DNA from: Pseudovibrio sp. Ad37
GTDB lineage: Bacteria > Pseudomonadota > Alphaproteobacteria > Rhizobiales > Stappiaceae
Length of the DNA: 64,000 nt
Assembly (NCBI RefSeq): GCF_001623075.1
Contig: NZ_LMCF01000223.1
Span: 124,001-188,000, forward strand
Direction: 5' to 3'
Below the pieces are notes generated by a model that was not told the origin of the DNA, did not search any database, and saw nothing but the letters and a program-made list of their open reading frames with translations. The translations under genes and the position numbers were made by a program. Below are positions 35,941 through 40,256 of this stretch, piece by piece. The first letter of the stretch is position 1. The number at the start of each line of letters is the position of its first letter.

Positions 35941-36633
35941 TCAGCTCACCATGTCGAAGAACTCGGCTTCAAGCTCACACATATGAGTAAAGCTCTCTGA
36001 GATCTCGCTTTGGCGCTTCACACGTTCTTCTTCGCCAATCGAGTTCACTTCCCGCTTAATCCACTCAATGAACTCTCCAAACTCATCGGTCGCCAGAAAC
36101 TCAACCCACTCAGCAAGGTATAACCGCTCAGGCCGTGGCTTGGCTGCTTCCCGATGGCCCCATTCGCGATAGATCCACTCCGAAGCCAGCAATGTTGCCA
36201 TGCCATCAACGTAGTGACCTTTGCCAGCTGTCGACAACAGCGTTGCGCCAATTGCCCGGGTAATCGTATTGGGCTTTGCAGCCTCATAAACATCAGGCGC
36301 GATGCCCAGTTCTTTAAAGGTGCGCTGAAAATACCCCAGTTCGTTGGAAGTCAGTTGCTGCGCAAAACCAGACAACCGTGCTTTAGCAGCCATTGTCGGC
36401 GCCTTGGCAATCAGGAATCCAAGCGCAGATGCCAAGTCCTGAATGTAGTGGTAATCCTCCAACAAGTAACGGGTGAACACCTCGGCACTCACTGTGTCAT
36501 TGCCAACAGCACTGGTAAACGGGTGATTGATCGCCTTATTCCAAGCAGGTCCTGCAGATTTCACAAGCCAATCCGTAAAGGTCTCATCCGTATGAGTGAT
36601 CTTGTAGTTGGCATAACTTGCAGTGTTCAGCAT
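35941..36633 (-). CDS. tenA: TenA family protein (thiaminase II-like)
   Basis: A 230-residue helical TenA/PqqC-fold protein. Family segments are FTDWLVKSAGPAWNKAINHP at the N-terminus, YLLEDYHYIQDLASALGFLI in the middle, and LLASEWIYREWG. TenA enzymes salvage the thiamine pyrimidine moiety; no other thiamine gene is next to it, so the role is inferred. The start at 36633 follows GGGAGG on the minus strand; the longer frame to 36717 adds 28 residues without a ribosome binding site. It is monocistronic with a strong terminator. Confidence 0.85.
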   Translation of the reverse strand: MLNTASYANYKITHTDETFTDWLVKSAGPAWNKAINHPFTSAVGNDTVSAEVFTRYLLEDYHYIQDLASALGFLIAKAPTMAAKARLSGFAQQLTSNELGYFQRTFKELGIAPDVYEAAKPNTITRAIGATLLSTAGKGHYVDGMATLLASEWIYREWGHREAAKPRPERLYLAEWVEFLATDEFGEFIEWIKREVNSIGEEERVKRQSEISESFTHMCELEAEFFDMVS

Positions 36634-36908
36634 TCTCGTGTGCCTCCCAACACATTGTCCTGAAGCGCATCCTCCTAAAAGTGGTTCGGATATTCCCAAA
36701 AAGGATACGCATGGCAAAAACGCTAAGAGCAGGAAGCGTCAATCTTGAACAACGCAAAGTGCTCTGGCTTACATCTACTTCGAACAATGCCACTCAGAGT
36801 TACGCTGCACTAGACGGAAATCACCGTATATGCCCCCTGCAATTTTAGGGGTATCATCTCGCGCCCGTCTTCCTGCAACACACTGCACCCTCTACTTTGC
36901 CGGGAAAA

Positions 36909-37358
36909 CTAAGCCTTCCACTCATACAAAATATCTGGTGCACCTTCTTCATTCTCTGAACCGCTTGTCCGCTTCACTTCCTTAAACCCATGCACTTCGT
37001 AAAATGCTCTCGCATCCACATTCTCAACAAAGCACATAAGCTTCAGATTTCCGGAAGAGTGAGCTTTTGCTTGGTCTAAGAGCTTTGTACCAACGCCCTT
37101 CCGCAGGTGCCGCGGATCCAGATAAAGCTGTTCTACCCAGTCATCTTTGGTGGCCATCATACCTATGATTTGCTCATCTCCCATGACTATTGTCAGTTCA
37201 TTCTCTTTAAAAACAATATTCTGAAAGAACCAAAGATCTTCTTCTGGCGTGTGCAGTCTAGGTATAAATGAAAGGCATCGGTCTCGCGAATACCGGTACA
37301 TGCGAGCGACCTCAGGCAACTCATCATACCGCGCAGCTCTAATTTCAAGTGTCTGCAT
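36909..37358 (-). CDS. GNAT family N-acetyltransferase
   Basis: A 149-residue acetyltransferase. The acetyl-CoA loop is in DPRHLRKGVGTKLLDQAKAH, and ENVDARAFYEVHGFKEVKRT is the usual C-terminal part. The start at 37358 (MQTLEIRAARYDEL) follows GGGGGGA on the minus strand; a longer frame up to 37496 is rejected. The substrate is unknown. Its upstream side borders the long dispersed repeat copy B. Confidence 0.87.
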   Translation of the reverse strand: MQTLEIRAARYDELPEVARMYRYSRDRCLSFIPRLHTPEEDLWFFQNIVFKENELTIVMGDEQIIGMMATKDDWVEQLYLDPRHLRKGVGTKLLDQAKAHSSGNLKLMCFVENVDARAFYEVHGFKEVKRTSGSENEEGAPDILYEWKA

Positions 37359-37443
37359 ATTCCCCCCATAATTTGGGATAAACCTAGCATAACCTCTACG
37401 TAAAGTATTCCCGCAAACACCAATAGCACCACATGGCATCCCA

Positions 37444-38039: not shown

Positions 38040-39077
38040 TTATGCAGCAGCTTCTGCTTTTGGCTTAATCAGGCCGCGGTTCACCAGAACCTCAGCAATC
38101 TGAACTGTGTTCAGCGCAGCGCCTTTACGCAGGTTATCGGAAACAACCCACATGTTCAGGCCGTTCTCAACGGTCGCGTCTTCACGAATACGGGAAACGT
38201 AAGTCGCATCTTCGCCAGCACACTCGTAAGGAGTGACATAGCCGCCGTCTTCACGCTTATCGACAACCAGAATACCCGGCGCTTCGCGCAGCAGGTCCTG
38301 AGCTTCTTCAGGAGAAAGTGGGCTGTCCAGTTCCATGTTCACGGACTCGGCATGACCAACAAACACAGGCACGCGAACAGCAGTACAGGTTACCTTGATG
38401 GTTGGATCGAGCATCTTCTTGGTCTCAGCAAGAACCTTCCACTCTTCCTTAGTGTAACCATCTTCCATGAATTCATCGATATGCGGGATCACATTAAACG
38501 CAATGCGTTTGGTGAACTGCTGAGGCTCAATCGGGTCGTTTACGAAAACAGCGCGGGTCTGATTAAACAACTCGTCCATCGCATCTTTGCCACCACCGGA
38601 AACGGACTGGTAAGTGGAGACAACGAGGCGCTTGATACCAGCTTTTTCGTGAATTGGCTTAAGAGCAACAACCAACTGTGCAGTGGAGCAATTCGGGTTC
38701 GCGATGATGTTCTTCTTTTTGAAGTCAACAATATCATCAGCGTTCACTTCAGGCACGATCAGTGGAACATCCTGATCATAACGCCATGCAGAAGAGTTAT
38801 CGATGACAACACAGCCCTTGGCAGCAATCTTTGGTGCCCACTCTTTTGCAATAGAGCCACCGGCAGACATCAGGCAGATATCAACCTCGGAGAAATCAAA
38901 GTTCTCCATCGCTTTAACTTTCAGCGTCTTATCACCAAAGGAGATTTCTTTGCCCTGCGAACGGCGAGATGCCAATGCAATCACTTCATCAGCCGGGAAA
39001 CCGCGCTCTGCCAGAATATCCAGCATTTCCGCACCTACATTGCCGGTAGCACCTGCAATCGCAACCTTATAACCCAT
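38040..39077 (-). CDS. asd: Aspartate-semialdehyde dehydrogenase Asd
   Basis: A 345-residue cytoplasmic enzyme that makes aspartate semialdehyde, the branch point to Lys/diaminopimelate, Thr, Met and Ile. It has the NADP loop VAIAGATGNVGAEMLDIL, the catalytic-Cys segment NPNCSTAQLVVALKP, and the substrate-binding stretch SVSGGGKDAMDEL. The start at 39077 (MGYKVAIAG) fits the family and follows AGAGGA; the longer frame to 39182 would add 35 Arg/Pro-rich residues. Directly upstream on the same strand is a 44-codon Thr/Lys-rich ORF that looks like a leader peptide, so attenuation by aspartate-family amino acids is proposed. Confidence 0.95.
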   Translation of the reverse strand: MGYKVAIAGATGNVGAEMLDILAERGFPADEVIALASRRSQGKEISFGDKTLKVKAMENFDFSEVDICLMSAGGSIAKEWAPKIAAKGCVVIDNSSAWRYDQDVPLIVPEVNADDIVDFKKKNIIANPNCSTAQLVVALKPIHEKAGIKRLVVSTYQSVSGGGKDAMDELFNQTRAVFVNDPIEPQQFTKRIAFNVIPHIDEFMEDGYTKEEWKVLAETKKMLDPTIKVTCTAVRVPVFVGHAESVNMELDSPLSPEEAQDLLREAPGILVVDKREDGGYVTPYECAGEDATYVSRIREDATVENGLNMWVVSDNLRKGAALNTVQIAEVLVNRGLIKPKAEAAA

Positions 39078-39183
39078 TGGTTTTGTCCTCTTCGTCTCCC
39101 CCGCTGGCTTCCGGAGGCTGACTGCGCCCGGTGAGCCCTCTGGCGCCCTCCGTCCCGGGGAGAGCGCGGGAAAGAGAGGCACC
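39078..39183 (-). promoter_or_regulatory. GC-rich structured leader between the Thr-rich ORF and asd
   Basis: Competing stems are visible on the minus strand. GCGCTCTCC can pair with GGAGGGCGC (one G-U). The same TCTCCCC can instead pair with GGGGGAGA, just before the AGAGGA ribosome binding site of asd. GCGCC and GGGCGC could form a further stem. No classic T run follows, so control may be at translation start rather than at termination. Confidence 0.4.
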
Positions 39184-39318
39184 TTAGACGGTGGTTTTTG
39201 TCGTTTTCGTGGTGATTGTCTTGGTAGTAGTCGCGGTCACTTTTGCAGCCGACATCATGCCCGCGGTTTTCGCCGCAGTGCGCATGAATTTTGTTGTGTC
39301 GGTCTTGCGAAGGAACAT
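39184..39318 (-). CDS. 44-aa Thr/Lys-rich putative leader peptide of asd
   Basis: This short ORF ends 106 bases before the asd start. Of its last 17 codons 11 are Thr, 3 Lys and 1 Ile (TATTTKTITTKTTKTTV, then TAA), and earlier Thr and Lys codons also occur. Thr, Lys and Ile are all end products of the pathway that asd feeds. The layout matches the thrL type of leader peptide, where ribosome stalling on scarce charged tRNA changes downstream RNA folding. The ribosome binding site is weak (GCGGA directly before ATG). A lysine-rich chance ORF is the alternative. Confidence 0.6.
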   Translation of the reverse strand: MFLRKTDTTKFMRTAAKTAGMMSAAKVTATTTKTITTKTTKTTV

Positions 39319-39354
39319 TCCGCGTAACTCTTTCCCAATAAATAGATCGCGGGT

Positions 39355-39383
39355 TTCATGCCTTCACAGGAAAGATTTGTCAA
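39355..39383 (-). promoter_or_regulatory. Possible promoter for the asd leader
   Basis: On the minus strand TTGACA (39383-39378), then 17 bases, then CATGAA (39360-39355). The -35 is consensus and the -10 is weak. It would start a transcript about 30 bases before the leader ORF. Confidence 0.35.
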
Positions 39384-39478: not shown

Positions 39479-40246
39479 TCATTCAGGCAAAATAAACCCT
39501 GATGTAAGCTCAACTTTTGAACCGCCATGATCTACATGCGAAACGTCTAGGAAGGCATTCGCGGCCTTTCCACCAAGTTCAATTTGCCGCAGTTCAGGCA
39601 CGCAGTATTCCGAATCCAGGTCAGCTGCCCACTCCACATCAACTGTGTAACCACGGTGTGTCAGTTCCTGCCCACTCACGCAGCCTTTTAGCGCACCGAG
39701 TAAATCATCAGCACACGAAAGATAACCCGCCCGAGCAATCGAGGCTTCTGGCGACATCGCGCAGTCCAGCACATGTGCAAGTGCACCGCAGGCCAGTTGA
39801 TCCTCAAACGCAGGCCGCAAACTGCCATCCGGCCACTTCTCCCCTGCAGCAACCAGTAAGACTTTACCGGAAACCTCTTTCAAACAAGCCGCCACCGCTG
39901 CTGCATTCCGAAGTGCAGCAGCGAACACCCGCCCTTCTCTTGGCAAAGCAGAAAGCGTCGCACCGTTGGGGCTGGGCAGGACCAACACATCGCTAGCAGA
40001 GAGCCCCATGAGCGTTGGTGGAGACAGCGAGTAACCATCCTCTCGGCGCTTCCCGGCACAAACTCCGCCAATCTCAACAGCCAGCGCTTTCCCCTCATCG
40101 CGACCAGCAACAGGCACCACCTTTGCCCCTCTGCCACACGCAACAGAAGTCGCTGTCGAGAAACTCAGGCAATCAACAATCACAGTCGCAGCAAAGCCAT
40201 CACTGCTTGCGTTCCGCCCCCACTCCAAATGCACAAAGTCAGCCAT
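39479..40246 (-). CDS. 2-phosphosulfolactate phosphatase-like protein (ComB family)
   Basis: A 255-residue cytoplasmic protein with the ComB fold. Recognisable parts are ATVIVDCLSFSTATSVACGRG (the family's DVLRFTTT region), VLVLPSPNGATLSAL, and KVLLVAAGEKWPDGSLRPAF with the conserved Asp/Gly. ComB proteins hydrolyse 2-phosphosulfolactate in coenzyme M synthesis in archaea; in bacteria their role is less clear. The ATG at 40246 follows GAGG by 7 bases. The first ten codons and the ribosome binding site are duplicated 906 bases to the right. Confidence 0.75.
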   Translation of the reverse strand: MADFVHLEWGRNASSDGFAATVIVDCLSFSTATSVACGRGAKVVPVAGRDEGKALAVEIGGVCAGKRREDGYSLSPPTLMGLSASDVLVLPSPNGATLSALPREGRVFAAALRNAAAVAACLKEVSGKVLLVAAGEKWPDGSLRPAFEDQLACGALAHVLDCAMSPEASIARAGYLSCADDLLGALKGCVSGQELTHRGYTVDVEWAADLDSEYCVPELRQIELGGKAANAFLDVSHVDHGGSKVELTSGFILPE

Positions 40247-40256
40247 AAACAACCTC
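40217..40256 (-). repeat. 40-bp direct repeat, left copy (start of the ComB-like gene)
   Basis: This copy contains the ribosome binding site and first ten codons (MADFVHLEWG) of the ComB-like gene and matches 41123-41162 at 38 of 40 positions. Together they flank the L,D-transpeptidase gene. Confidence 0.85.

What the first reader, a model, noticed from the sequence alone, without database searches (positions are those of the whole stretch)
39078..39383. Thr/Lys/Ile-codon leader ORF in front of asd: a candidate amino-acid attenuator
A 44-codon ORF on the asd strand (39184-39318) ends in a stretch in which 11 of 17 codons are Thr, 3 Lys and 1 Ile. It stops 106 bases before asd, whose product feeds Lys, Thr, Met and Ile synthesis. 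The intervening GC-rich RNA has mutually exclusive stems, one of which would cover sequence next to the asd ribosome binding site. The logic is that of E. coli thrL, but I know of no described leader for alphaproteobacterial asd. The lack of a T run suggests control of translation rather than termination.
Basis: partly seen in the sequence, partly recalled or inferred. Interest (0 to 1): 0.82.

Follow-up and report, generated by a model that had tools for sequence, protein, structure and literature searches.

The report
Threonine/lysine-codon leader controlling asd
In front of the gene for a shared step of threonine and lysine synthesis lies a short reading frame packed with threonine and lysine codons, kept in many alphaproteobacteria, which probably acts as a starvation sensor that lets more of the enzyme be made when those amino acids run short.

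Summary
In detail: ORF 39184-39318 (-) has 11 Thr and 3 Lys in its last 17 codons and stops 106 nt before asd. It is not chance: an ORF with at least 5 Thr in its last 15 codons lies upstream of asd in 16/16 genomes of the genus (Pseudovibrio), 65/129 others of the order and 5/68 others of the class (shuffles 0.2 each). Thr (4.7x) and Lys (3.5x) are enriched, Ile is not (0.6x). A TTGAC element lies upstream; terminator-like sites are no commoner than chance. Two helices compete for one strand after the leader stop. In Rhizobiaceae, folding with a ribosome footprint forms the anti-sequestor mainly when the ribosome waits at codons -12 to -3, which covers the Thr/Lys cluster, and loosens the ribosome-binding region. 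In Pseudovibrio the switch is weaker; other families show none beyond shuffles. Partly in print: S. meliloti SEP5 is translated and called 'possibly a leader peptide', 'conserved only in Sinorhizobium' (PMC10117765, passages). New here: breadth, Thr+Lys signature, switch model. Response to starvation is untested.

The parts
39378..39383 (-). TTGACA, -35-like promoter element upstream of the leader ORF; GGCA at 39359-39362 is also fixed in the genus
   Evidence: conserved in all 16 genus genomes; TTGAC 60-230 nt before the leader stop in 63 of 74 leader loci (shuffled 8.8) and 70 of 70 named non-Pseudovibrio loci with upstream sequence (shuffled 6.9). A sequence match, not a mapped start; the sigma-70 consensus scan found no site
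39184..39318 (-). leader ORF, 44 codons, ends ..TATTTKTITTKTTKTTV-stop
   Evidence: conserved Thr/Lys C-terminus in 16/16 genus genomes with synonymous variation at Thr codons; order and class counts
39180..39193 (-). hairpin 1:A, CACC (in the last Thr codons) with GGUG (just after the stop), stop codon in its loop
   Evidence: MFE; 96.7% of cells paired in the genus
39142..39183 (-). A:C anti-sequestor: GGUGCCUCUCUUUCCCG (39167-39183) with CGGGACGGAGGGCGCC (39142-39157)
   Evidence: RNAalifold; 98.7% of cells paired, slid controls 47-61%; not beyond shuffles as a duplex energy (1 of 15 loci at p up to 0.05)
39143..39167 (-). B:C hairpin GCGCUCUCC / GGAGGGCGC, shares strand C with A:C and so excludes it
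   Evidence: 94.1% of cells paired
39168..39179 (-). S, pyrimidine strand CCUCU-C-UUUCCC just after the leader stop that pairs with D
   Evidence: MFE; helix 3 100% and helix 2 90.7% of cells paired
39087..39102 (-). D, GGGGGA (39097-39102) and AGAGG (39087-39091, probable asd Shine-Dalgarno), sequestered by S
38040..39077 (-). asd, aspartate-semialdehyde dehydrogenase, the controlled gene
   Evidence: Pfam PF01118 and PF02774; start aligned across relatives

Best explanation
This is the leader region of asd: a cis-acting, ribosome-mediated attenuator that reads threonine and lysine supply and, most likely, controls initiation of asd translation. RNA is made from a promoter upstream of the leader ORF. 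With Thr and Lys plentiful, ribosomes run through the Thr/Lys codons to the stop; they cover strand A, or the end of the leader folds back on A (hairpin 1:A), so B pairs with C and pyrimidine strand S pairs with the purine tract and Shine-Dalgarno region D: asd is translated little. When charged tRNA-Thr or tRNA-Lys runs short, the ribosome waits on the cluster, blocks the 1:A fold but leaves A free; A pairs with C, S is held away from D, and asd is translated. Shown by sequence: the conserved leader, its Thr and Lys (not Ile) enrichment, the upstream TTGAC element, no terminators beyond chance, conservation of the alternative helices in two clades. Shown by modelling only: the ribosome-dependent switch (clear in Rhizobiaceae; stall against stop only in Pseudovibrio). 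Inferred: response to starvation, its direction, and translational rather than transcriptional control.
For: Thr-rich ORF upstream of asd: 16/16 genus, 65/129 order, 5/68 class against 0.2 in shuffles and 0 antisense in each; in 23 of 46 sampled families of the order; and in 79 of 79 named loci with enough upstream sequence, at 4 or more Thr in the last 15 codons (the best 80 of 339 relatives, overlapping the unnamed genus genomes). Last 15 codons of 73 leaders: Thr 0.453 (4.7x), Lys 0.153 (3.5x), Ile 0.027 (0.6x), Asn 0, Gln 0.002, Glu 0.003, so Lys is not a by-product of A-rich codons; all 73 hold Lys. Synonymous variation at invariant Thr codons, e.g. codon -8 ACG 6, ACT 6, ACA 4, Thr in 16/16. 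Stop-to-asd distance median 109 nt. TTGAC upstream in 63/74 and 70/70 loci. Terminator-like sites 2 of 75 against 2.9 in shuffles. A:C pairs in 99.8% of cells in 55 distinct Rhizobiaceae rows and 98.7% in 15 distinct Pseudovibrio rows; slid controls 27-72%. The leader strand GGCC pairs with A more strongly than shuffled A in 53 of 60 Rhizobiaceae loci. Footprint folding of nascent RNA, 56 Rhizobiaceae rows: A:C beats B:C in 62-86% of rows for A-site codons -12 to -3, in 0-11% for -18 to -13 and in 0% for -2 to stop; mean P(A:C) 0.68 at Thr/Lys codons (n=496), 0.15 at others (n=1016); three other footprints move the edges by at most about one codon. Full-length S:D probability 0.75 (ribosome at stop) or 0.74 (free) falls to 0.34-0.37 (stalled). 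Pseudovibrio nascent RNA: A:C 0.90 with the ribosome 15 nt before the stop, 0.01 at stop. SEP5 of S. meliloti, six Thr and three Lys codons near its 3' end, seen by Ribo-seq and, as a tagged fusion from another promoter, by Western blot (PMC10117765, passages).
Against: In Pseudovibrio itself A:C also forms in free nascent RNA (0.87), only partly (0.40 against B:C 0.47) with the ribosome 9 nt before the stop, and is mixed at Thr codons -3 and -2; the full-length RNA favours S:D for stalls at all codons from -26 to -2 (0.38-0.48), and a ribosome at the stop lowers S:D to 0.14, the wrong direction for simple sequestration. Over 142 loci mean Shine-Dalgarno accessibility is 0.43 free, 0.43 stalled, 0.43 at stop; 14 loci rise and 13 fall by more than 0.1 on stalling. 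Leader loci are no less accessible there than loci without a leader (0.50 against 0.48, p = 0.47), and their AUG is more accessible (0.53 against 0.43, p = 0.0005). Duplex energies against composition-matched shuffles: A:C at p up to 0.05 in only 4 of 60 Rhizobiaceae, 1 of 15 Pseudovibrio and 4 of 58 other loci; S:D in 0-1 of 60, 4-6 of 15 and 5-6 of 58. A generic three-state test over 76 loci: 5 of 65 order loci at p up to 0.1, observed mean below the shuffled mean; its stall-against-stop part 12 of 65, mean 11.0 against 9.6; four loci that I take for Rhizobiaceae score 0.08-0.27 alone. Covariation is thin: one doubly changed pair in A:C per clade (reached by 6/500 and 155/500 shuffles), none in the Rhizobiaceae off state. 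Half of the sampled families show no leader at this threshold. The 56 Rhizobiaceae rows are close kin and count as few independent observations.
Confidence: 0.68

Rival explanations
1. Same sensor, other output: the leader controls transcription, for example by Rho acting on the C/U-rich stretch just after the leader stop when no ribosome shields it, or by a terminator without a U run.
For: The first 24 nt after the stop are 75% pyrimidine against 41% in the middle of the linker, which recalls a Rho-loading stretch (recalled, not tested); the trp leader of S. meliloti is described as a transcription attenuator (PMC10117765, passages).
Against: Terminator-like sites 2 of 75 against 2.9 by chance (none in the window stretch). 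A ribosome stalled far from the stop would expose, not shield, the stretch, so the sign would be odd. In Rhizobiaceae the structures reach the ribosome-binding region.
Confidence: 0.2
2. The ORF makes a small protein that acts in trans, as reported for peTrpL of S. meliloti, and its place before asd is secondary.
For: Tagged SEP5 is detected in the soluble fraction (PMC10117765, passages).
Against: The N-terminal part is not conserved even within Pseudovibrio (unrelated types) while Thr/Lys codons, place before asd and distance are conserved. No Pfam family.
Confidence: 0.07
3. The leader senses mainly threonine; the lysine codons are kept for RNA or ribosome reasons. (Not exclusive of the main explanation.)
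For: Thr is far commoner than Lys (0.453 against 0.153); at 5 or more per 15 codons only Thr stands out.
Against: All 73 leaders hold Lys, and other A-rich codons (Asn, Gln, Glu) are nearly absent; Lys codons sit inside the predicted switching window (mean P(A:C) 0.77 at Lys, 0.62 at Thr).
Confidence: 0.35
4. Chance or compositional low-complexity ORF.
For: None found.
Against: Shuffled and antisense controls near zero; synonymous variation at Thr codons; translation reported in S. meliloti (PMC10117765, passages).
Confidence: 0.01

Closest known systems
S. meliloti SEP5, sORF in the 5' UTR of an 'aspartate dehydrogenase' gene (Hadjeras et al. 2023, PMC10117765; passages seen)
   Same: Six Thr and three Lys codons near the 3' end match the leader found in S. 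meliloti L211..RKTTAKTTTKTV; proposed there as a leader peptide; translated. I infer that the gene meant is asd.
   Different: Said to be conserved only in Sinorhizobium; the passages seen give no structure, switch or wider distribution. Here such leaders are found in 23 of 46 sampled families of the order, in Pseudovibrio, and sporadically elsewhere in the class.
E. coli thrL / Rfam Thr_leader (thrABC attenuator; recalled)
   Same: Short ORF rich in codons of the end product, alternative RNA stems, pathway logic.
   Different: There Thr+Ile codons, intrinsic terminator, thrABC operon; here Thr+Lys codons, no terminator beyond chance, asd, no Rfam match.
S. meliloti trp attenuator rnTrpL/peTrpL (PMC10117765, passages)
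   Same: Ribosome-mediated leader in the same bacterial group.
   Different: Trp codons (recalled), transcription attenuation.
asd RNA motif of Lactobacillales (RF01732; table row in PMC2864571, passages)
   Same: Bears the name of asd.
   Different: Different bacteria; no match here.
uORFC-8-2 motif before cysS in Rhodobacterales (PMC8632094, passages)
   Same: Alphaproteobacterial uORF with codons of the matching amino acid, said to have the marks of ribosome-mediated attenuation.
   Different: Cys codons, a tRNA synthetase gene.

Membership tests
ribosome-mediated amino-acid attenuator (general kind) | short ORF upstream enriched in codons of the regulated amino acid | tested here: met
ribosome-mediated amino-acid attenuator (general kind) | leader is transcribed with the gene, promoter upstream | tested here: inconclusive
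   TTGAC conserved upstream; no mapped start seen; consensus scan negative
ribosome-mediated amino-acid attenuator (general kind) | mutually exclusive RNA structures downstream, chosen by ribosome position | tested here: inconclusive
   met in Rhizobiaceae models and for stall against stop in Pseudovibrio; not beyond shuffles elsewhere
ribosome-mediated amino-acid attenuator (general kind) | leader ORF is translated | not testable with these tools
   reported for S. meliloti SEP5 (PMC10117765, passages)
ribosome-mediated amino-acid attenuator (general kind) | expression rises on starvation for the amino acid | not testable with these tools
   needs an experiment
Rfam Thr_leader (thr operon leader) | covariance-model match | tested here: not met
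   window stretch at E up to 10: only two chance-level matches to other families; ten related loci: no match of any family at gathering score
Rfam Thr_leader (thr operon leader) | intrinsic terminator with U run before the first gene | tested here: not met
   none in the window stretch; 2 of 75 leader loci against 2.9 in shuffles
Rfam Thr_leader (thr operon leader) | Thr and Ile codons | tested here: not met
   Thr yes, Ile depleted, Lys instead
asd RNA motif RF01732 | covariance-model match | tested here: not met
SEP5 leader of S. meliloti | Thr/Lys codon cluster at the 3' end of a short ORF in the asd 5' UTR | tested here: met
   identity of the gene in the paper is inferred

The most novel reading that the evidence does not exclude
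An old alphaproteobacterial attenuator that reads threonine and lysine together and opens or closes the ribosome-binding site of a single branch-point gene, asd, instead of ending transcription: translational attenuation of an amino-acid biosynthesis gene by two end products at once, with a conserved codon signature but fast-changing peptide and RNA sequence, so that structure-based RNA surveys and peptide conservation searches can both miss it.
Probability: 0.42. Interest if true: 0.75.

Novelty: new variant of a known kind. Interest (0 to 1): 0.6.

Why it matters
asd makes the intermediate from which lysine, diaminopimelate (cell wall), threonine, methionine and isoleucine all derive (established knowledge), so its control sets a main branch of metabolism in rhizobia and marine relatives. 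If right, a peptide-coding sensor said in print to be restricted to one genus is spread over half the sampled families of the order, reads two amino acids, and likely acts without a terminator. It would give a role to a translated S. meliloti small protein, and shows that codon composition at a fixed place finds leaders that sequence conservation does not.

Tried and rejected
Equilibrium folding of full-length leaders with a ribosome footprint over 142 loci: no overall change of Shine-Dalgarno accessibility. Duplex-energy tests against dinucleotide shuffles: S:D at p up to 0.05 in 3-8 of 9 other Stappiaceae, 4-6 of 15 Pseudovibrio, 0-1 of 60 Rhizobiaceae, 5-6 of 58 others; A:C in 4 of 9, 1 of 15, 4 of 60, 4 of 58; 1:A in 0 of 9, 0 of 15, 53 of 60, 1 of 58. 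Generic three-state switch test over 76 loci: no excess over shuffles in the combined score. Covariation counts: mostly wobble-type changes, few double changes. A Thr/Lys leader at other pathway genes of this genome: none found upstream of hom, lysC, thrC or a second asd-like gene. The TTKTT DNA pattern occurs 11 times in the genome, 2 of them overlapping in this leader, against 64 for the reversed pattern, so the pattern alone is not informative; in the nine others the frame runs 10 codons or more from the pattern start to a stop, and they were not followed further. Rfam: chance-level matches only in the window stretch (suhB 16.5 bits against a gathering score of 41). Ile as a sensed amino acid: rejected.

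Rows dropped: of 147 further order genomes with a match 129 were read, the 18 lowest-scoring rows left out; of 80 class genomes outside the order with a match 68 were read, 12 left out, mostly low-scoring. Loci L072, L087, L107, L137, L255, L282 and L305 begin a few codons inside the gene and were kept as they are; L041 has only 138 nt upstream and was misplaced, corrected. L193 has 31 nt upstream and was not counted. In one search every third Rhizobiaceae row was used (19 of 56) plus 16 Pseudovibrio rows; searches used all 56. One search kept 142 loci with distinct upstream sequence and a Thr count of at least 4 (named) or 5 (unnamed). The label Rhizobiaceae is mine: the 56 rows include several records titled 'Rhizobiales bacterium' and one MAG titled Arenimonas. 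The TTGAC null is a plain base shuffle.

Full report
What was checked. The host most likely belongs to Pseudovibrio: the closest named loci are Pseudovibrio. The 16 genus genomes, own included, were aligned.

Is it more than chance? Three samples were scanned for any ORF of 10 codons or more that stops 50-250 nt before asd and has at least 5 of one amino acid in its last 15 codons. Thr: 16 of 16 genus genomes, 65 of 129 other genomes of the order, 5 of 68 of the class outside the order; dinucleotide shuffles give 0.2 each, the antisense strand 0 each. In the order sample the next amino acids are Ala 11 (shuffled 3.8), Arg 8 (11.2) and Leu 7 (2.2). In the class sample 5 Thr ORFs is no more than the 5 of Ala (shuffled 3.0), but far above its own expectation. 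By family of the order, 23 of 46 sampled families hold at least one. Among the 80 best named loci of 339, all 79 with enough upstream sequence have one with 4-10 Thr in the last 15 codons: Pseudovibrio, Roseibium, Stappia, Breoghania, Rhizobium, Sinorhizobium/Ensifer, Agrobacterium, Shinella and others; some are the same genomes as.

What is conserved. In 73 leaders Thr makes up 45% of the last 15 codons (4.7 times its share in the upstream part of the same peptides), Lys 15% (3.5 times), Ile 2.7% (0.6 times); Asn, Gln and Glu are nearly absent. So the signature is Thr plus Lys. Peptide sequence otherwise is not conserved, not even in the genus, where unrelated N-terminal types occur, whereas invariant Thr positions use different Thr codons. 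The stop lies a median 109 nt before asd (middle half 104-120). A TTGAC element sits 60-230 nt before the leader stop in 63 of 74 leader loci (8.8 in shuffles) and in 70 of 70 named non-Pseudovibrio loci (6.9 in shuffles). The first 24 nt after the stop are 75% pyrimidine and the last 24 nt before the AUG 69% purine. Terminator-like sites between leader and asd are no commoner than in shuffles (2 of 75 against 2.9). In this genome, lysC, hom, thrC and a second asd-like gene show no such leader.

RNA structure. In Pseudovibrio the linker can form A:C (39167-39183 with 39142-39157) or B:C (39159-39167 with 39143-39151), which share strand C; with B:C the pyrimidine strand S (39168-39179) pairs with the purine tract and probable Shine-Dalgarno (39087-39102). 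Pairs are kept in 98.7% (A:C) and 95.3% (the other state) of cells in 15 distinct rows; sliding the partner gives 47-66%. In Rhizobiaceae the same plan is built from other sequence: A GUCUCUGG, B UCCCCGG, C CCGGGGAC, S GCUCUC, D GAGAGC; cells paired 99.8% and 99.2%, slid 27-72%, and a strand GGCC inside the leader pairs with A (97.6%; energy beyond shuffles in 53 of 60). Double changes are few: one pair in A:C in each clade, reached by 6 of 500 and 155 of 500 shuffles, none in the Rhizobiaceae off state, two in the Pseudovibrio off state, reached by 106 of 500. As bare duplex energies A:C and S:D do not stand out from composition-matched shuffles in Rhizobiaceae (4 of 60; 0-1 of 60). Conservation supports the pairs; covariation does not prove them.

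Does ribosome position switch it? RNA cut off before the asd start was folded with a ribosome footprint blocked. In 56 Rhizobiaceae rows the free RNA and the RNA with a ribosome at the stop form B:C (0.93, 0.98), while a ribosome whose A-site codon begins 9 or 15 nt before the stop gives A:C (0.72, 0.83); in the full RNA the S:D probability falls from 0.74-0.75 to 0.34-0.37. Moving the ribosome codon by codon, A:C beats B:C in 62-86% of rows for A-site codons -12 to -3, in 0-11% for -18 to -13 and in none for -2 to stop; other footprints move the edges by at most about one codon. The Thr/Lys cluster of this clade lies at -11 to -2 (19 rows). No parameter was fitted to get this match, although the clade is narrow and A:C and B:C were chosen from the same sequences. 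In Pseudovibrio the nascent RNA forms A:C without a ribosome (0.87) and for a ribosome at any codon up to -4 (0.70 or more), is mixed at -3 and -2, and forms B:C at the stop (0.73); the full RNA settles in S:D whatever the stalling codon (0.38-0.48 for -26 to -2), and a ribosome at the stop opens it (0.14). Over 142 loci Shine-Dalgarno accessibility does not change on average, loci with and without leader do not differ in it, and a generic test over 76 loci finds no three-state switch beyond shuffles. The mechanism is thus well supported by modelling in one family, partly in the window's own genus, and open elsewhere.

What is known. In the passages I read of PMC10117765, S. meliloti SEP5 is a short ORF with six Thr and three Lys codons near its 3' end in the 5' UTR of an 'aspartate dehydrogenase' gene, translated by Ribo-seq and Western blot, 'conserved only in Sinorhizobium', 'possibly a leader peptide'. 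The S. meliloti locus found here, with a leader ending ..RKTTAKTTTKTV before asd, fits; that the gene is asd is my inference. In the listings of nine searches of the held library and the passages opened I saw no other description of an asd leader in alphaproteobacteria; most subscription journals are not held, and Vitreschak et al. 2004 was seen only as a citation. Passages of PMC1273637, PMC2864571, PMC4117421 and PMC8632094 describe other motifs. Rfam 15 has no match beyond chance.

Verdict. A genuine, widely conserved Thr/Lys leader of asd, first flagged in one genus by others, here extended to half the sampled families of the order. It works like an amino-acid attenuator; it is not a member of the Rfam thr-operon leader family (terminator, Ile codons and model match all absent). 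Control of translation initiation is the likeliest output.

Noticed in passing
L019 (G012:C5:156567-156698) and L008: One Pseudovibrio genome carries, about 3.8 kb upstream of its asd, a relic copy: a Thr-rich leader of the other N-terminal type (read by eye) plus a cut-off asd start. It suggests an old tandem duplication of leader and asd.
   Followed up: partly
L001 against L004/L005, upstream of asd: Asd is 99% identical between the window genome and two others, and the leader end and linker are nearly identical, but promoter side and leader N-terminus are of unrelated types, as if exchanged by recombination inside the leader.
   Followed up: no
G000:C135:10029-11784 (L002, L321), outside the window: A second asd-like gene (41% identity) lies next to an aspartate-kinase-like gene in this genome; no Thr/Lys leader was found before it.
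   Followed up: no
39479-40252 (-): Upstream neighbour on the same strand is a 2-phosphosulfolactate phosphatase-like gene (Pfam PF04029).
   Followed up: no
35941-37370 (-): Further downstream of asd on the same strand lie a GNAT acetyltransferase-like and a TENA/THI-4-family gene.
   Followed up: no
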